From positions 620,001 to 684,000 of the forward strand of contig NZ_JADKYT010000001.1 of NCBI RefSeq assembly GCF_015354445.1: DNA of 64,000 nt. Direction: 5' to 3'. The number at the start of each line of letters is the position of its first letter. Position 1 is the first letter of the stretch. Source of the DNA: Methylophilus sp. QUAN. GTDB lineage: Bacteria > Pseudomonadota > Gammaproteobacteria > Burkholderiales > Methylophilaceae. The notes beneath the pieces are model-generated. The model ran no database searches, was not told the origin of the DNA, and was given only the letters and a program-made list of their open reading frames with translations. Shown here in pieces: positions 48,682 through 56,493 of this stretch. Made by a program: the position numbers and the translations under genes.

Positions 48682-51312
48682 ATGTCTGCACAACAATTCA
48701 CATCTGCAGGGCGGGGCAAGCTAATCAGACGTTTGTGGCTGATGGTCTTGTTTTCGCTGTTAATTTGCCTCGCGTTTACGCAGGCCAGCCTTACTGCGCT
48801 CACCCTTCCGTCAGCCACCCATAAACTGGTTGTATTGTTACTTTCTTTAGGCGTGGCCTTATGGGGGGTATTAACCATCCTCATCTGGCAGCAACAACGC
48901 ACTGCTCTGGCGATGCAAGCCGCAGACCTGCAAACCTTTAACCGCGTGCTGGCCGATGCTTATGCCGGTGATACGTTTAGCCCAGTCATGTTTGCACCGA
49001 CCGACTCTGCCAGTGTGGAAGAAGGCTGGCAGCAATTACGTACACAGCTCACGCAACTGGATAGCGATGGCGCCTCGGTTAAACATCATCATCAACAGTT
49101 AAATCAGCTCTATCTCGCCTTGAGTCAATGTAACCAGGCGATTGTGCAGAGCCAGGATAAACACCGCCTGTTTGAACAGATTTGCCAGATTATTGTGAAT
49201 TTGGGTCATGCCAATATGGCCTGGATTGGGGAGCTGGATAGAGGTAGCAAGCAGATCGTGGTGTCCAGTGCCTTTGGCTCGGGTATTAATTATCTGGACG
49301 AAGTGCTGATCTCGGCGGACCCTGCTGCCGCGAGTGGCAGAGGGCCTTGTGGTTTAAGCATGCTGTCCGATCACCCATACTGGGTGCATGATTTCCAGAC
49401 CAATCCGATCAGCGCCGTATGGCATGACAAGGCCACCGAGTTTGCCTGGAAAGCTGCGGCATTTTTGCCATTGCATACTGAAGGCAAAGTTATCGGCTGC
49501 CTGTCATTGTATGCCGAGCACGAGCAGGCATTTGAACCGGATATCCAGCGCTTGCTGCAAGGCATGGTGGCGAATATTGATTTCGCCCTCGACCGTTTTG
49601 AGGTGCAGGCGCAGAACAGCCTGTTTCAAACCAATTTGCTGATGAGCGAGCAGCGTGCGCAACTGGTGCTGGAAAACGCACTGGATGCCATTGTGAATAT
49701 AGACCTGCAAGGCGCGATTGTGGAGTGGAACCGGGCTGCCGCGCAGATGTTTGGTTATACGCGGGCGGAGGTGCTTGGGCGCATGCTGGAAGATGTCATT
49801 GTGCCGCCTGCCTATCGTGAGGCACATCATCAGGGCATGCGGCGTTTGCAGCAATCGGGGCAGTCGCGATTATTAGGTAAATTAATTGAAATTACCGCAT
49901 TGCGACGTGATGGCAGCGAGTTTCCGGTCGAGTTGACCATCGTTGAAATCAAGCGCGACCATGAACATTATTACAGCGCGTTTATTCGTGACATCACCAC
50001 CCGTAAAGAAGCAGAAGAGCGCATACGCTTTCTGGCCAATTATGATGCCTTAACAGGTCTGCCCAACCGCAATCTGCTCAATGAGCGTGTGATTGTGGAG
50101 ATTGAAAAAGCCTGGGATCAGGACGGTCAGTTCGCACTGATGTTTCTGGATCTGGATCACTTTAAGGATGTGAATGATAGTTTGGGGCACCGCTACGGCG
50201 ATAACCTGTTGGTCGCATTAACGCATCGATTCCAAAGCCTGGTGCGGCCGCAAGACACTATTTGCCGCCTGGGTGGCGATGAGTTTGTATTTCTGCTGGC
50301 CGAGGCTGATCATGCCATTGCCAAAGAGGTTGTCGAGCGCTTGCTGAAAGCGGTGGAGCAGCCGTTTGTGATCGACCAGTACGAGTTGACCATTACCGCA
50401 TCGGTTGGGGTTGCCATCTATCCGGATGACGGTCTCGATATGGAAAGCCTGCAACGCAATGCCGATGTCGCCATGTATCGTACTAAAAAAGAAAGCCGCA
50501 ATAGCTACCGGTTTTTTAGCAACCACATGCAAGTGCAAACTGCGCGTAATCTGCAATTGGTCAACGCCTTGCGTCAGGCTATTGCGCTGGGACAACTGGC
50601 GGTATATTACCAGCCGCAAGTCGCACTCGATTCTGGCCGCTTGATTGGCGTAGAGGCTTTGCTGCGCTGGAAGCATCCGCAGCTAGGGTTTATTTCACCA
50701 GCTGAATTTATTCCACTGGCCGAGTCCAGCGGCTTGATTATCTCCATCGGCAGCTGGGTGCTGGAGCAGGCCACACAGCAAATCCACGCCTGGCAGTTGG
50801 CGGGCATTAGAGACATTTCTGTCTCGGTCAACTTGTCCAGTATTCAGTTCCGCGATCCCAAACTGCCTGCGTTGGTGAAGAGTGTGCTTGAACGTTACCA
50901 GGTGTCACCGCAATGCCTGGAGTTGGAGCTGACCGAAGGCGTGGCACTGGAAAACCCGGAAGGGGCGGTGGCTATGATGGATGCACTGAGCGGCTTGGGC
51001 GTGCGTTTGTCGATAGATGATTTCGGCACTGGCTATTCTTCACTCAGCTACCTGAAAAAATTTAAAGTCTATAAACTCAAGGTCGACCAGAGCTTTGTCC
51101 GCGACATTACCACCGACGATGAGGACAAGGCGATCGTCATCGCGATTATCCAGCTGGCGCGCAGCCTGGGTATGAAAACCATTGCCGAGGGCGTGGAGAC
51201 GCCGGAGCAGAAAGCCTTCTTGCAAGCGCAAGGCTGTGATGAGATGCAGGGCTATTTGCTGAGCAAACCCATGAGCAGTGACGACGCCACGACTTTCCTG
51301 CTGTCTTATTAA
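48682..51312 (+). CDS. GAF-PAS-GGDEF-EAL c-di-GMP turnover protein
   Basis: 876 residues: two N-terminal membrane helices (about 17-70), a GAF domain (about 155-310), a PAS domain ('ALDAIVNIDLQGAIVEWNRA', about 325-450), GGDEF (about 455-610) and EAL (about 625-870). The cyclase site RLGGDEF and I-site RPQD are intact. In EAL, 'GVEALLRW', 'LELTEG', 'IDDFGTGYSSLSYL', the Lys in 'KLKVDQSF' and 'AEGVETPEQ' are all present, so both activities could be functional, with GAF/PAS choosing the direction. Third gene of the c-di-GMP cluster. Confidence 0.93.
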   Translation: MSAQQFTSAGRGKLIRRLWLMVLFSLLICLAFTQASLTALTLPSATHKLVVLLLSLGVALWGVLTILIWQQQRTALAMQAADLQTFNRVLADAYAGDTFSPVMFAPTDSASVEEGWQQLRTQLTQLDSDGASVKHHHQQLNQLYLALSQCNQAIVQSQDKHRLFEQICQIIVNLGHANMAWIGELDRGSKQIVVSSAFGSGINYLDEVLISADPAAASGRGPCGLSMLSDHPYWVHDFQTNPISAVWHDKATEFAWKAAAFLPLHTEGKVIGCLSLYAEHEQAFEPDIQRLLQGMVANIDFALDRFEVQAQNSLFQTNLLMSEQRAQLVLENALDAIVNIDLQGAIVEWNRAAAQMFGYTRAEVLGRMLEDVIVPPAYREAHHQGMRRLQQSGQSRLLGKLIEITALRRDGSEFPVELTIVEIKRDHEHYYSAFIRDITTRKEAEERIRFLANYDALTGLPNRNLLNERVIVEIEKAWDQDGQFALMFLDLDHFKDVNDSLGHRYGDNLLVALTHRFQSLVRPQDTICRLGGDEFVFLLAEADHAIAKEVVERLLKAVEQPFVIDQYELTITASVGVAIYPDDGLDMESLQRNADVAMYRTKKESRNSYRFFSNHMQVQTARNLQLVNALRQAIALGQLAVYYQPQVALDSGRLIGVEALLRWKHPQLGFISPAEFIPLAESSGLIISIGSWVLEQATQQIHAWQLAGIRDISVSVNLSSIQFRDPKLPALVKSVLERYQVSPQCLELELTEGVALENPEGAVAMMDALSGLGVRLSIDDFGTGYSSLSYLKKFKVYKLKVDQSFVRDITTDDEDKAIVIAIIQLARSLGMKTIAEGVETPEQKAFLQAQGCDEMQGYLLSKPMSSDDATTFLLSY

Positions 51313-51488
51313 TACCTGAGCCATATCCCCCGCCCATGTGTTTGATCGAGGCTGTACGCAGTTTGCGTGGCGGGCATCTCCCCGTTTTTGCATGTTTAAT
51401 GTTGCGTTTATATATTAATTAAATTTAAATATTGTTAAAATAACTCACGAAAAGATCTTGATAAATCATTAAAGTGAGGAGTTGCACC

Positions 51489-52763
51489 ATGAGTACCATC
51501 ATGAGTAATAAGAAGGGTAGTCGCCGTATTGTTGTATCCCAGATGAAGAAAGTCAGCCTGGCTATTTTGCTGGTGGGTTTGTCCACGCAGTTACAGGCGA
51601 TTGAGCTGTTAAGCGGGTTTGGTGGAGAGGCCGGTTTCGGTGAGTTGGCCATGTTGCCGAATGATGATGACTCAAGCAATGCCTTGAACCTGCCATTTGG
51701 GATTAACTTTTTTGGCCAGGATTTCAGCCGTTTTTTTATTAATAACAATGGCAACATCAGCTTCTTAAGCCCCTTGGAGAGTTATACGCCGATCGCATTC
51801 CCGGTTGCCAGCCAGCCAATGATTGCACCCTATTGGGCAGATGTGGATACGCGTGCTGGTCAGGCACCTGATCCCGTAGGCAGTAATCGTGTCTATGTGG
51901 CTTCGCCAACTGCCGATTCGGTAGTGGTGACCTGGCATAACGTTGGCTATTTTCCTGCCCAGAATGACAAACAGAACAATTTTCAATTAGTGCTGCAGAA
52001 AACGCCAGGGACGATGAATGGTAGTTTTAGTGCCGAGTTTCGTTATGACCGTTTGCAATGGACGACAGGTAGCGCCAGTGGCGGCGTCAATGGCTTGGGC
52101 GGCACGCCTGCACAAGCTGGCTATGATGCAGGCAATAATGTGAACTACGAAGTATTACCAGGCTCTTTCTCGAACGAGGTGCTGAACCTGGTCAATTTGA
52201 GCAATGTGTCTACCGCGACCCCTGGTTTATGGCGCTTCTCGTTTAATAACGGCGCCTTGCCAGGGCAAACCGCTGAAAATGCGTTTCTCCCGGTGGTTGT
52301 GGATGGCACTTATCAGTTTGAGTTTAACGTACAGTTGAATCAGCGCGTGTTTGTTGACCCGCTAGTGGCGGTTGGCTATGACTACGAAGTGTCGGGCGGC
52401 AATCAGTTTACGTCTGTATTGTTGCCGTTGCTGGCCGCTGATACGGATGGCTATGCCATTTATGCCTTAGGCGACATGACCCCTGGTGGTTTGTTGGGGA
52501 CCGTGGCTGGCGGCACAGTGTTTCATTTTGCGACGCCTTTGTCAGGCTTTACGGTGGCCGGTATTGATACTGCGGCGATGCTGGATCCGGCTAACACGAC
52601 AGCTTTTGTCACCGGCCTGACCTTTTTGAATGCAGGTGTTGTGCAGATGTCGCAAACACCGATCACGACATTGGTAGCACAAGTGCCTGAGCCATCTTCT
52701 TATGCCATGTTGTTATGCGGCCTGGCGGGCCTGCTGGCCATGCGCAGAAAAATGCGCGCTTAA
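51489..52763 (+). CDS. PEP-CTERM protein with NIDO-like extracellular domain
   Basis: 424 residues from the ATG at 51489 (GAGGAG 8 bp upstream); a further ATG at 51543 gives a cleaner signal peptide, 'MKKVSLAILLVG...LQA'. The N-terminal domain has 'LNLPFGINFFGQDFSRFFIN', 'NNGNISFLSP', 'MIAPYWADVDTRA' and 'VVTWHNVGYF', which match the nidogen (NIDO) extracellular adhesion fold. The C-terminus is 'VPEPSSYAMLLCGLAGLLAM' followed by RRKMRA, a PEP-CTERM signal. Probably a matrix or surface adhesin, fitting its position behind the c-di-GMP genes. Confidence 0.85.
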   Translation: MSTIMSNKKGSRRIVVSQMKKVSLAILLVGLSTQLQAIELLSGFGGEAGFGELAMLPNDDDSSNALNLPFGINFFGQDFSRFFINNNGNISFLSPLESYTPIAFPVASQPMIAPYWADVDTRAGQAPDPVGSNRVYVASPTADSVVVTWHNVGYFPAQNDKQNNFQLVLQKTPGTMNGSFSAEFRYDRLQWTTGSASGGVNGLGGTPAQAGYDAGNNVNYEVLPGSFSNEVLNLVNLSNVSTATPGLWRFSFNNGALPGQTAENAFLPVVVDGTYQFEFNVQLNQRVFVDPLVAVGYDYEVSGGNQFTSVLLPLLAADTDGYAIYALGDMTPGGLLGTVAGGTVFHFATPLSGFTVAGIDTAAMLDPANTTAFVTGLTFLNAGVVQMSQTPITTLVAQVPEPSSYAMLLCGLAGLLAMRRKMRA

Positions 52764-52783: not shown

Positions 52784-52811
52784 GAAACCCTGCTTTTGCA
52801 GGGTTTTTTAT
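52784..52811 (+). terminator. Terminator of the NIDO-like gene
   Basis: AAACCCTGC-TTTT-GCAGGGTTTTTT, strong stem and T-run. Confidence 0.92.
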
Positions 52812-52872: not shown

Positions 52873-52901
52873 TTGACTATGTAAATGATAATTATTATCA
52901 T
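52873..52901 (+). promoter_or_regulatory. Promoter of the small-protein operon
   Basis: TTGACT (52873-52878), exactly 17 bp, TATCAT (52896-52901). The -10 lies inside the Fur box, so a bound repressor would block it. Confidence 0.75.
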
Positions 52902-52903
52902 TT
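52883..52903. promoter_or_regulatory. Fur box (perfect 21-bp palindrome)
   Basis: AAATGATAAT-T-ATTATCATTT: a perfect inverted repeat closely matching the Fur consensus (GATAATGATAATCATTATC family). It overlaps the -10 region of the promoter ahead of three small genes. Iron-dependent repression is the expected behaviour. Confidence 0.85.
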
Positions 52904-52928
52904 GAAGACAGTTTAGCCAAGGAGAGTC

Positions 52929-53141
52929 ATGATGAAACGTCATACGGTGGTTGGAAAAACCATGCTGGCTGGAAAAACCGCCTGCAAAGTGCTTTATCAC
53001 CAGTCTTCAGACACGGTGGAGCTTGAGGTCGGTGGTACCACACTTAAATTTGAGGCCGACAGCTTTATCGTCATCAACGAAATGCTACGCAAGGCAGCGG
53101 CCCGGATTGTGATGCAGACTGAAATCGAAATGAGTATTTGA
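52929..53141 (+). CDS. Small protein of unknown function, first gene of the Fur-box operon
   Basis: 70 residues, not recognised as a named family. AAGGAG just upstream supports this ATG or the next (52932). The sequence is a basic N-terminus, then 'KTMLAGKTACKVLYHQSSDT' and 'VELEVGGTTLKFEADSFIVI' with a helical end, i.e. a short beta-beta-alpha fold by pattern. No signal peptide and no membrane segment; likely cytoplasmic. The third gene of the cluster is a clear paralogue. Control by the Fur box 26 bp upstream suggests a role under iron limitation. Confidence 0.7.
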   Translation: MMKRHTVVGKTMLAGKTACKVLYHQSSDTVELEVGGTTLKFEADSFIVINEMLRKAAARIVMQTEIEMSI

Positions 53142-53148
53142 AAGAGAG

Positions 53149-53424
53149 ATGGCCATGAATGCGATGAATATCCACGCGATGCGTTACGACCCCAGTTTGC
53201 CTGATGCTGAATCAGTGATGGCGTCACTGTTGTATGTGGCGACCTTGTATATCAAAAAGCCAACCTATGACCTGGCGAAGCAGGCCTTGCGCCTGGCCGA
53301 AACACTGACTGCGCCGGAGTATGCAGATTCAGACCTGATTTGTAGTGTATCGCGCCGCATGTGTGTGCAATGGACTTTGCTGGTCAATGAGCATGAGCAG
53401 GCTGAAACGCCACTGGCAATATAA
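53149..53424 (+). CDS. Small helical protein of unknown function, second gene of the Fur-box operon
   Basis: About 91 residues; probably starts at the ATG at 53155, six bases after the purine-rich AAAGAGAG, rather than 53149. Mostly helical by pattern ('SVMASLLYVATLYIKKPTYD', 'LAKQALRLAETLTAPEYADS', then two Cys in 'LICSVSRRMCVQW'). No motif recognised. Lies 7 bp after the first gene and 20 bp before the third, so all three should be one transcript. Confidence 0.65.
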   Translation: MAMNAMNIHAMRYDPSLPDAESVMASLLYVATLYIKKPTYDLAKQALRLAETLTAPEYADSDLICSVSRRMCVQWTLLVNEHEQAETPLAI

Positions 53425-53450
53425 AAAACAACCGTGTTTAGGGGTTGAGT

Positions 53451-53693
53451 ATGAGTGAGGAAAGTATGTGTAAGAAAATTCTGTTGTCCGGCCAGGCCGG
53501 TTTTCGTGTGCATTATTGTGAAACACACCGCACGATAGAGCTTGAGATTGGTGCCATGAGTTTGCGGCTGGATGAAGACGCGCTGGAAGTGATGAGTGAT
53601 GCTTTGGATGAGTCTGTCAGCAAGTTGCAGGCTTTGCATGCGACCAAAGGGTCTTTTCAGGCATTTATGCGGCAATTGAATATGCCGGATTAA
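53451..53693 (+). CDS. Small protein of unknown function, third gene of the Fur-box operon (paralogue of the first)
   Basis: 80 residues from the ATG at 53451 (AGGGG upstream), or 75 from the ATG at 53466 (GAGGA upstream). The core 'KILLSGQAGFRVHYCETHRT' followed by 'IELEIGAMSLRLDEDALEVM' aligns with the first gene's product across ~45 residues (shared L-x-G, V-x-Y, T-[VI]-ELE-[VI]-G, L-[KR], D). It carries an extra C-terminal helix ('SFQAFMRQLNMPD'). Function unknown. Confidence 0.68.
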   Translation: MSEESMCKKILLSGQAGFRVHYCETHRTIELEIGAMSLRLDEDALEVMSDALDESVSKLQALHATKGSFQAFMRQLNMPD

Positions 53694-53742: not shown

Positions 53743-54717
53743 TCAATATTTGGCAGGAACGAACATTTCTTTGGGGACGGGCTCGCGGATGTAGTCGGCG
53801 TTGTAGACGCGCTTGGGCAGGACGACAGGCGCGTGTTCCACCTCCCCATATTCGATCTGGCTTAACAGATGGCTAATGCAGTTCAGGCGCGCCTTCTTTT
53901 TGTCGACGGCTTCTATGACCCACCACGGCGCTTCGGGGATATGCGTACGTTCCAGCATGACTTCCTTGGCTTTGGTGTATTGCTCCCACAAGCGGCGGGA
54001 TTCCAGGTCCATGGGGCTCAGTTTCCATTGCTTGAGCGGATCGTGGATGCGCGTCATAAAGCGCAAATGCTGCTCGTCGTCGGTGATTGAGAACCAGTAT
54101 TTAATTAAAATAATGCCGGAGCGCACCAGCATCTTTTCAAACTCGGGCACTGAGCGGAAAAACTCTTCGTACTCATCGTCGTTACAAAAGCCCATGACTT
54201 TCTCGACACCGGCACGGTTGTACCAGCTACGGTCAAACAGCACGATTTCACCGCCTGCTGGCAGGTGCGAAATATAGCGCTGGAAATACCACTGCGAACG
54301 CTCTCGCTCGCTGGGGGCTGGTAATGCCGCCACCCGGCAAACGCGCGGGTTCAGGCGTTGTGTGACGCGCTTAATGACGCCTCCTTTACCAGCGGCATCA
54401 CGCCCTTCAAACAGCACCACGACTTTCAATTTGTTGCGCACGACCCAGTCTTGCAGTTTGACCAGTTCGCCTTGCAACCGGAACAGTTCTTTGAAATAGG
54501 TTTGGCGATCAGACAGGGTGGACTTGCTGTGCGTAGACGGTTGGCCATCCATATTGGTCGCGGCCGCAAATTCGGCCAGGATCTGGTCCATACGTTCGTC
54601 GTCCAGTTCCATTTCCAGCTCTTCATCAAAACTATCCAGCATTTCATTGTTGAATCGTTCGTCCATAGACAAGCGTTCATCAACAGCTTCAATCTCGGCA
54701 GATTTTTCAGTCGTCAT
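53743..54717 (-). CDS. ppk2: Polyphosphate kinase 2 (PPK2 family)
   Basis: 324 residues: an acidic N-terminal extension (about 1-60), then the P-loop kinase PPK2 core with Walker A 'EGRDAAGKGGVIKRV', 'LPAPSERERSQWYFQRYI', Walker B 'EIVLFDRSWYNRAGVE' and the lid region 'DDEQHLRFMTRIHDPLKQWK'. PPK2 class I enzymes use polyphosphate to phosphorylate ADP or GDP. Divergent from the phosphate transporter, with a Pho-box-like repeat in front of each, suggesting shared phosphate control. Confidence 0.93.
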   Translation of the reverse strand: MTTEKSAEIEAVDERLSMDERFNNEMLDSFDEELEMELDDERMDQILAEFAAATNMDGQPSTHSKSTLSDRQTYFKELFRLQGELVKLQDWVVRNKLKVVVLFEGRDAAGKGGVIKRVTQRLNPRVCRVAALPAPSERERSQWYFQRYISHLPAGGEIVLFDRSWYNRAGVEKVMGFCNDDEYEEFFRSVPEFEKMLVRSGIILIKYWFSITDDEQHLRFMTRIHDPLKQWKLSPMDLESRRLWEQYTKAKEVMLERTHIPEAPWWVIEAVDKKKARLNCISHLLSQIEYGEVEHAPVVLPKRVYNADYIREPVPKEMFVPAKY

Positions 54718-54763
54718 GGGCGTTCCGATCAGGATAGGCAGACCTCTAATGTAGATTTAAAGC

Positions 54764-54781
54764 ATGACAGTTTGATGACTA
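54764..54781 (-). promoter_or_regulatory. Pho-box-like repeat facing ppk2
   Basis: On the minus strand TAGTCAT-CAAA-CTGTCAT: two 7-mers with 11-bp spacing; the second is a perfect half-site and the first matches 5 of 7. It lies 47 bp upstream of the ppk2 ATG. Confidence 0.55.
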
Positions 54782-54803
54782 TTGCGCACACGACCATGGT
54801 TTT

Positions 54804-54821
54804 TTGTCATCAATATGACAT
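54804..54821 (+). promoter_or_regulatory. Pho-box-like repeat facing the phosphate transporter
   Basis: TTGTCAT-CAAT-ATGACAT: 6 of 7 and 5 of 7 matches to the CTGTCAT half-site with the standard 4-bp gap, 50 bp upstream of the transporter ATG. It is also palindromic (TGTCAT/ATGACA), so another regulator is possible. Confidence 0.5.
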
Positions 54822-54870
54822 ATTTCAAACCAATACTTTGGGTTCTCAATAGAACACCCGGAGAATATTG

Positions 54871-56493
54871 ATGGAAACTTCAGCGGCTAGTCATTCGACG
54901 CTGTTACAGAGTGCGTCTAAACCTAATCTTGATAAGAAGTCTGGTGTGCTGACCATTGCGGTATTCGTCGGTTTGCTGCTCATGGGCCTGGTCTATACCG
55001 GCTTTAGCCTGATGCATGATGTGACGGATACCGGCGCACAAACGACCACCTGGTTACCATTTATTTTGCTGGGTGTGGCGCTGGTGATTGCGCTCGCCTT
55101 TGAGTTTGTGAATGGCTTTCATGATACGGCGAATGCCGTTGCGACCGTTATTTACACACATTCTTTGCCAGCAAACTTCGCGGTAATCTGGTCAGGCACG
55201 TTTAACTTCCTGGGCGTGTTAGTGTCTAGCGGCGCGGTGGCTTTCGGCATTATTTCCTTATTGCCAGTGGAGCTCATTTTGCAAGTGGGTTCTGGCGCAG
55301 GGTTTGCCATGGTATTTGCCTTGCTGATCGCCGCCATTTTGTGGAATTTAGGCACCTGGCTGCTAGGTTTGCCAGCCTCTTCCTCACACACTTTGATTGG
55401 CTCGATTATCGGTGTGGGTGTTGCCAATGCGCTGATGCATGGCCGTGATGGCACCAGCGGTGTTGATTGGGCGCAAGCGACAAAAATTGGTTACTCCTTG
55501 TTACTTTCACCTTTGATTGGTTTTTTCTTCGCGGCATTGCTATTGCTGGCGCTCAAAGCCTTGGTCAAAAGCAAAGAGCTGTACCATGAACCCAAAGGCA
55601 ATAAACCACCGCCATTGTGGATACGCGGGTTGCTGATTCTGACCTGTACCGGCGTGTCGTTTGCGCATGGCTCCAATGATGGCCAAAAAGGCATGGGCCT
55701 CATTATGCTGATTCTGGTGGGGACGGTGCCTATGGCCTACGCCTTAAACCGAGCCATGCCAGTGGACCAAATGACGCAGTTTGTTGCAGTGGCGCAAGTC
55801 ACCCAGCAATCACTGGAACACAACACCCGTTTAGCGCCGCCTGCCAGTGACGAAGCCGCACGTCATGTGCTGACTGAGTATGTGCGCACCAAGGCCGTGA
55901 CGCCTGACGTGGTGCCTGCCTTGGCTGCCATGACCGGCAGCATAGGCGAGCAAGTGAAGTCACATGGGACCTTTGCTGAAGTGCCTGCTGAGCAGGTGGG
56001 CAACGTGCGTAACGATATGTACCTGGTGTCTGAGGCCATCCGCTTTCTGGACAAGGATGAGGGCGTCAAGTTTGATGCGGATACCAAAGCCAATGTCACT
56101 GCGTTTAAAAAGGAAATTGATGGCGCAACCAAGTTTATTCCATTATGGGTAAAAGTAGCGGTCGCGATTGCGCTTGGCCTGGGCACCATGGTGGGCTGGA
56201 AACGTATTGTGGTAACGGTTGGTGAGAAGATTGGTAAAACGCACCTGACTTATGGCCAGGGTGCCTCGGCCGAGCTGGTGGCCATGACCATGATAGGTGC
56301 CGCGGATATGTATGGGTTACCGGTTTCGACCACCCATGTGTTGTCATCTGGGGTGGCGGGGACCATGGCCGCAAACAAGTCTGGTCTGCAAATGTCCACC
56401 ATCCGCAATCTGCTGATGGCCTGGGTGCTGACTTTGCCTATGGCAATGGTGTTATCAGGCAGTTTGTACTGGCTGTTCACCCATTTGTTTTAA
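54871..56493 (+). CDS. PitA-type inorganic phosphate transporter
   Basis: 540 residues from the ATG at 54871 (GGAG 7 bp upstream). Two PHO4 halves carry the family signatures 'NGFHDTANAVATVIYT' and 'SFAHGSNDGQKGMGLIMLIL', with 10-12 hydrophobic segments and a large soluble loop (about 300-415). The second-half 'ADMYGLPVSTTHVLSSGVAG' is also typical. Imports phosphate (as metal phosphate) with protons. Shares a divergent promoter region with ppk2. Confidence 0.93.
   Translation: METSAASHSTLLQSASKPNLDKKSGVLTIAVFVGLLLMGLVYTGFSLMHDVTDTGAQTTTWLPFILLGVALVIALAFEFVNGFHDTANAVATVIYTHSLPANFAVIWSGTFNFLGVLVSSGAVAFGIISLLPVELILQVGSGAGFAMVFALLIAAILWNLGTWLLGLPASSSHTLIGSIIGVGVANALMHGRDGTSGVDWAQATKIGYSLLLSPLIGFFFAALLLLALKALVKSKELYHEPKGNKPPPLWIRGLLILTCTGVSFAHGSNDGQKGMGLIMLILVGTVPMAYALNRAMPVDQMTQFVAVAQVTQQSLEHNTRLAPPASDEAARHVLTEYVRTKAVTPDVVPALAAMTGSIGEQVKSHGTFAEVPAEQVGNVRNDMYLVSEAIRFLDKDEGVKFDADTKANVTAFKKEIDGATKFIPLWVKVAVAIALGLGTMVGWKRIVVTVGEKIGKTHLTYGQGASAELVAMTMIGAADMYGLPVSTTHVLSSGVAGTMAANKSGLQMSTIRNLLMAWVLTLPMAMVLSGSLYWLFTHLF

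What the first reader, a model, noticed from the sequence alone, without database searches (positions are those of the whole stretch)
52873..53693. Fur-controlled operon of three uncharacterised small proteins, two of them paralogues
A perfect 21-bp palindrome AAATGATAATTATTATCATTT overlaps the -10 of a TTGACT-N17-TATCAT promoter directly ahead of three tightly spaced genes for 70-, ~91- and ~80-residue proteins that I cannot place in any family. The first and third share a core (L-x-G, V-x-Y, T-V/I-ELE-V/I-G, L-K/R), so the unit looks like duplicate-middle-duplicate. The proteins have no signal peptide or membrane segment, so they are not ordinary siderophore-uptake parts. A new iron-limitation response module is possible.
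Basis: partly seen in the sequence, partly recalled or inferred. Interest (0 to 1): 0.75.

Follow-up and report, generated by a model that had tools for sequence, protein, structure and literature searches.

The report
Iron-starvation small-protein operon in Methylophilus
Three small uncharacterised genes sit behind an iron-repressor site, and relatives show that they are a relocated set of companions of a heme and iron uptake operon rather than a stand-alone new system.

Summary
A 21-bp inverted repeat (52883-52903) overlaps the -10 of a sigma-70-type promoter ahead of three genes under purifying selection: A (70 aa), B (89-91 aa), C (80 aa). A and C are paralogues (profile-profile probability 98.7%). 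The repeat is this genome's Fur box: 10 places carry it with at most 3 mismatches, none in the reversed control, and 7 of the other 9 adjoin iron genes.

Relatives reveal the context. In other Methylophilaceae, A, B and C lie in various combinations inside a Fur-boxed operon with an S4 ribosomal-protein paralogue, HemP, TonB, ExbB and ExbD. This genome keeps such an operon elsewhere, with a second B but no A or C. B-C pairs recur in three genomes outside the family, by Fur-like boxes, once with HemP.

C is a predicted beta4-alpha protein; 9 of 10 relatives outside the family carry four cysteines, the window copy Cys-x-x-His. It is distantly like Pfam DUF6686, below cut-off. B is a predicted three-helix bundle. 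Best explanation: iron-starvation-induced cytoplasmic accessory proteins of HemP/TonB-dependent uptake, C binding metal or heme, B its partner, A a version without the motif. Regulon membership is well supported; the mechanism is inferred.

The parts
52784..52807 (+). terminator-like hairpin closing the upstream PEP-CTERM/nidogen-like gene, so that the operon starts on its own
   Evidence: pattern match only
52873..52901 (+). sigma-70-type promoter TTGACT-N17-TATCAT
   Evidence: not above chance on its own
52883..52903 (.). Fur box (21-bp inverted repeat) overlapping the -10
52919..52926 (+). ribosome-binding site AAGGAGAG of gene A
   Evidence: read from the sequence
52929..53141 (+). gene A, 70 aa, paralogue of C without the Cys-x-x-Cys/His motif
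53149..53424 (+). gene B, 91 aa (or 89 aa from 53155), predicted three-helix bundle; second copy of the family at G000:C3:304365-304661
53451..53693 (+). gene C, 80 aa, predicted beta4-alpha fold with Cys23-x-x-His26 between strands 2 and 3

Best explanation
A, B and C are small cytoplasmic accessory proteins of the Fur-controlled HemP/TonB/ExbB/ExbD heme- and iron-uptake regulon. When iron is plentiful, Fur-Fe(II) sits on 52883-52903 and blocks the promoter; in iron starvation it leaves and the three proteins are made together (inferred from the site, not measured). C (beta4-alpha, Cys/His motif in the turn between strands 2 and 3, four cysteines in relatives outside the family) most likely binds a metal ion (Fe or Zn) or heme; B (acidic three-helix bundle) is most likely its obligate partner, because the two are neighbours wherever both are found outside the family; A, the paralogue without the motif and with a more basic charge, most likely pairs with C or B as a modulator. 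I think that together they report or buffer newly imported iron or heme and tune HemP/TonB-dependent uptake. In Methylophilus the A-B-C set has been separated from the TonB operon, which retains a second B.
For: Fur box: perfect here; 10 distinct places in the genome within 3 mismatches, 0 for the reversed control; 7 of the other 9 adjoin iron genes, namely Bfd, ECF sigma/FecR, three TonB-dependent receptors, HemS with a PNPOx-fold protein, and the B-S4-HemP-TonB operon. A Fur gene is present, E 7e-47. Conservation: 56 of 65 operon starts (62 in the family, 3 outside) carry the box within 3 mismatches, against 31 of 1500 random windows of the same loci. Linkage: A-B-S4-HemP-C-HemP-TonB-ExbB-ExbD in G109, B-S4-HemP-C-TonB-ExbB-ExbD in G176; names by Pfam. 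Co-occurrence over 187 family genomes: 47 of the 48 with B have hemP; of 73 with A/C, 55 have hemP (not corrected for kinship). Outside the family: B next to C in G214, G305 and G432, with Fur-like boxes of 4, 3 and 1 mismatches, HemP in G214. Metal motif: Cys-x-x-Cys 25 or Cys-x-x-His 13 of 38 C proteins in the family, four-Cys pattern in 14 of 38, and in 9 of 10 outside; A has no such motif, 0 of 20. Folds.
Against: No expression, binding or phenotype data. The four-Cys site is incomplete in most family members (14 of 38 have it) and reduced to Cys-x-x-His in the window copy, so metal binding may have been lost there. A/C occur without hemP in 18 of 73 genomes, e.g. G055 and G057, which have S4-C-TonB-ExbB-ExbD and no recognisable Fur box in the stretch tested (7-10 mismatches for L078, L084, L085). 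Outside the family 12 of 27 hits show no box within 5 mismatches, and the background there is 300 of 2000. That A, B and C touch each other, or bind metal, is inference from gene order and residues.
Confidence: 0.4

Rival explanations
1. A and C are nucleic-acid-binding regulators of PC4/PUR-like (beta4-alpha, dimeric) architecture that act on transcription or mRNA of uptake genes, together with HemP (a post-transcriptional activator of receptor genes in Chromobacterium) and the S4 paralogue (S4 is an RNA-binding protein).
Confidence: 0.2
2. The set is an iron-sparing or metal-allocation device (chaperone or insertase adaptor for a metalloenzyme) that is needed when iron is short, and only co-regulated with uptake.
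For: Cytoplasmic small proteins with a Cys/His motif and a helical partner; the outside-family C genes of G188 and G432 lie by porin and FMN_bind-type genes, not by TonB. The first Foldseek row for C is a methane-monooxygenase inhibitory subunit, but at E 0.44 it is meaningless as a match.
Against: Strong linkage with HemP/TonB in the family; no metalloenzyme gene is a constant neighbour.
Confidence: 0.2
3. The three genes are remnants or selfish hitchhikers of the uptake operon with no function of their own (or a toxin-antitoxin-like pair).
For: Patchy distribution: B in 48 and A/C in 73 of 187 family genomes.
Against: dN/dS 0.02-0.10; Fur box kept in 56 of 65 operon starts; independent B-C pairs outside the family. 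The only toxin-antitoxin lead is a chance-level Pfam TacA1 score for C (E 0.19).
Confidence: 0.05
4. The operon answers to another metal regulator with a similar palindrome (e.g. Zur or a second Fur-family protein).
For: A second FUR-family gene exists in the genome, E 4.9e-9; Cys/His motifs would suit zinc.
Against: The same 21-mer stands before Bfd, TonB-dependent receptors, FecI/FecR and heme-degradation genes, which are iron targets.
Confidence: 0.05

Closest known systems
HemP/HmuP-TonB-ExbB-ExbD type Fur-regulated heme/iron-uptake operons (HemP, Pfam PF10636)
   Same: Same Fur control, and in relatives the same operon as A, B and C
   Different: The characterised operons I saw described (S. 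maltophilia hemP-hemA-smlt0796-smlt0797, C. violaceum chuPRSTUV; passages) are not said to hold A, B or C; the window operon has neither HemP nor TonB
Pfam PF20391, DUF6686
   Same: 10 of 41 members of the A/C alignment match it, best E 8.8e-5, over the Cys motif and beta part
   Different: The two scores printed are below the curated cut-off (17.5 and 19.9 against 23.9 bits); the window proteins give no match; no function is known
PC4/Sub1 and PUR-repeat single-strand nucleic-acid-binding proteins
   Different: No sequence similarity found; acidic charge; Z in the range of chance arrangements
S. maltophilia Smlt0796/Smlt0797 (unknown proteins of the Fur-controlled hemP operon)
   Same: Small unknowns in a Fur-controlled hemP operon; single deletions had no hemin-uptake phenotype (PMC9241770, passages)
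   Different: Smlt0797 has a predicted signal peptide there; their sequences were not compared here

Membership tests
Fur regulon | Fur box overlapping the promoter, matching the boxes of known iron genes of the same genome | tested here: met
Fur regulon | box conserved upstream of the homologous operons | tested here: met
   56 of 65 operon starts within 3 mismatches, background 31 of 1500
Fur regulon | iron-dependent repression and Fur binding | not testable with these tools
   needs RNA-seq/RT-qPCR and EMSA or ChIP
HemP-TonB-ExbBD operon | homologues of A, B, C in one operon with HemP, TonB, ExbB, ExbD | tested here: met
   for relatives; not for the window locus, whose operon holds only A, B, C
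HemP/HmuP (PF10636) | window proteins match the hemP model | tested here: not met
   no match for A, B or C at E up to 1
DUF6686 (PF20391) | score over the curated cut-off of 23.9 bits | tested here: not met
   window A and C: no match; outside relatives 17.5 and 19.9 bits; 0 of 274 class genomes over the cut-off. The bits of the best member were not printed
PC4/PUR-like nucleic-acid-binding proteins | shared fold | tested here: inconclusive
PC4/PUR-like nucleic-acid-binding proteins | binding of single-stranded DNA or RNA | not testable with these tools
   needs binding assays
Cys4/CxxC metal- or heme-binding small proteins | conserved ligand residues | tested here: inconclusive
   CxxC or CxxH in 38 of 38 family C proteins, four-Cys pattern in 14 of 38 and in 9 of 10 outside; metal not shown; A lacks the motif in 20 of 20

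The most novel reading that the evidence does not exclude
A, B and C form a previously undescribed iron- or heme-responsive sensor-adaptor in the cytoplasm: the metal-occupied state of C (Cys4 in outside relatives, Cys-x-x-His here), held by the helical partner B and modulated by the motif-less paralogue A, controls HemP- and S4-paralogue-dependent expression of uptake genes, so that Fur repression is followed by a second, protein-level or RNA-level checkpoint.
Probability: 0.15. Interest if true: 0.75.

Novelty: new variant of a known kind. Interest (0 to 1): 0.45.

Why it matters
It assigns three families without annotation to an iron-starvation regulon, gives them named neighbours (HemP, TonB, ExbB, ExbD, an S4 paralogue) and shows that B-C pairs recur in genomes outside the Methylophilaceae. 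That makes their role testable in Methylophilus laboratory strains by simple deletions. If C proves to be a metal or heme binder tied to HemP, it would add a layer between Fur and TonB-dependent uptake.

Tried and rejected

Literature: no paper in the held library has the term DUF6686. Searches for HemP with S4 and ExbB, for Methylophilus or Methylotenera with Fur or iron terms, for S4 with Fur box or paralogue terms, for hemP with tonB/exbB or Methylophil- and for Methylobacillus flagellatus or hemin-uptake terms showed nothing in the titles and abstract starts listed that describes this operon. Only passages of PMC9241770, PMC11002078 and PMC9131926 were read; the rest were listings.

Rows dropped before counts: one C fragment of 29 aa (38 of 39 kept); starts with fewer than 150 bases upstream or with an upstream stretch already seen. 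In that call a HemP gene after an A or C gene was counted as a start of its own, and the random windows came from the same loci and so include some true boxes. In one search all 27 outside-family hits were used, weak ones included; B and C hits of one genome can share a box. One search used protein A alone as query, so genomes with only a divergent C may be missed. The 17 A-B-C genomes are those seen in fetched loci.

Full report
What is there. The 21-mer AAATGATAATTATTATCATTT stands at 52883-52903 and has no chance match in 100 shuffles. It covers the -10 hexamer of TTGACT-N17-TATCAT; that promoter by itself is not more than chance. Behind it follow A (70 aa), B (91 aa, or 89 from 53155) and C (80 aa), 7-13 and 26 bases apart. 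All three are real genes: dN/dS is 0.02-0.10 in 11 of 14 comparisons within the genus, the other 3 being saturated. A and C are paralogues: E 1.1e-4 within the genome, probability 98.7% profile against profile. The window belongs to the genus Methylophilus: the A protein of Methylophilus sp. 14 is identical, that of M. methylotrophus DSM 46235 is 94% identical.

It is a Fur box. The own genome has 10 distinct places with the 21-mer at up to 3 mismatches, and none for the pattern read backwards. Seven of the other nine stand next to iron genes by Pfam: bacterioferritin-associated ferredoxin, an ECF sigma factor with FecR, three TonB-dependent receptors, HemS with a PNPOx-fold protein, and the B-S4-HemP-TonB operon. 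The other two adjoin a PEP-CTERM protein (L112) and a protein without a Pfam match (L114). A Fur gene is present. Over fetched loci, 56 of 65 operon starts that begin with A, B, C, S4 or HemP have the box within 3 mismatches, against 31 of 1500 random windows from the same loci. Three of the 65 are from outside the family; none of those three is among the 56.

The genes belong to the HemP/TonB operon. A search of the own genome with B finds a second copy at G000:C3 in a run B-S4-HemP-TonB-ExbB-ExbD behind a box AAATGAGAAACATTATCATTT. In G176 the run is B-S4-HemP-C-TonB-ExbB-ExbD; in G109 it is A-B-S4-HemP-C-HemP-TonB-ExbB-ExbD, with a box before A and another before the second HemP; other genomes have A-C-HemP-TonB. 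The simplest reading is that A, B and C are old members of this operon and that in Methylophilus the set A-B-C moved out, leaving one B behind. Separate A-B-C triplets were seen in 17 of 187 family genomes, 16 of them among the 22 of the own genus. Across the 187 genomes, 47 of 48 with B have hemP; of 73 with A/C, 55 have hemP and 18 do not; 7 have hemP but neither A/C nor B. These counts are not corrected for kinship.

Beyond the family. A profile of C finds 5 of the 368 other class genomes sampled and one of B finds 14, some of them weakly (E up to 0.009). B and C are neighbours in G214, G305 and G432. In G214 a Fur-like box (4 mismatches) and HemP precede a truncated TonB-receptor gene, B and C. 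In G305 a box (3 mismatches) precedes B-C, and a second one (5 mismatches) a further B. In G432 a box (1 mismatch) precedes B-C. Of 27 outside hits, 15 have a box within 5 mismatches in the 450 bases upstream, against 300 of 2000 random windows; 12 have none.

What the proteins look like. C: predicted beta-beta-beta-beta-alpha, mean pLDDT 87.5. In the family 38 of 38 C proteins have Cys-x-x-Cys (25) or Cys-x-x-His (13) at the turn after strand 2; the four-Cys pattern C-x9/10-C-x4-C-x2-C is in 14 of 38 and in 9 of 10 outside relatives. A has no such pair in 20 of 20, but keeps the second cysteine in 20 of 20. C proteins end in His in 23 of 38 and B proteins in Gln or His in 22 of 31; the window copies do not. 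B: predicted three-helix bundle, mean pLDDT 84.9. No fold match is significant. The only family lead is DUF6686: 10 of 41 A/C members match at E up to 0.1, best 8.8e-5, but the scores printed are under the cut-off and the window proteins do not match.

Verdict. G055 is Methylobacillus flagellatus KT and G158 Methylotenera versatilis 301 to judge from contig length; this is recalled and comes from no call.

Noticed in passing
L072 4678-5295 (own genome C3, about 303680-304294): A second ribosomal protein S4 without cysteines, in a Fur-boxed operon with HemP and TonB; 44% identical to the main S4 at C1:520120. An iron-regulated S4 paralogue is odd and recurs in most of the TonB-type loci of the family that were fetched.
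   Followed up: partly
C and B proteins of relatives: C proteins end in His in 23 of 38 (14 as Val-His), B proteins in Gln or His in 22 of 31; a similar ending shows in outside relatives. The window copies lack it. Possible recognition tail or metal ligand.
   Followed up: partly
L098 4200-5376 (G305): Fur-like box, B, C, then a second Fur-like box and another B: a B-C-B arrangement outside the family.
   Followed up: yes
L100 (G188) and L101 (G432): C genes next to outer-membrane porin-like and FMN_bind-type genes instead of TonB genes; FMN_bind was tested by Pfam in G188 only, the porins were named by eye.
   Followed up: no
L097 4666-5240 (G214): HemP and a truncated TonB-receptor gene directly upstream of B-C; only the first part of the receptor is present.
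   Followed up: no
L081 7405-7569 (G109): A second hemP gene with its own Fur box in front of TonB, in the same operon region as the first.
   Followed up: no
window 48682-52763 and 53743-56493: Neighbours unrelated to iron: a GAF/PAS/GGDEF/EAL protein, a nidogen-like PEP-CTERM protein and a polyphosphate kinase 2 by Pfam; the gene after that looks like a phosphate permease by eye.
   Followed up: no
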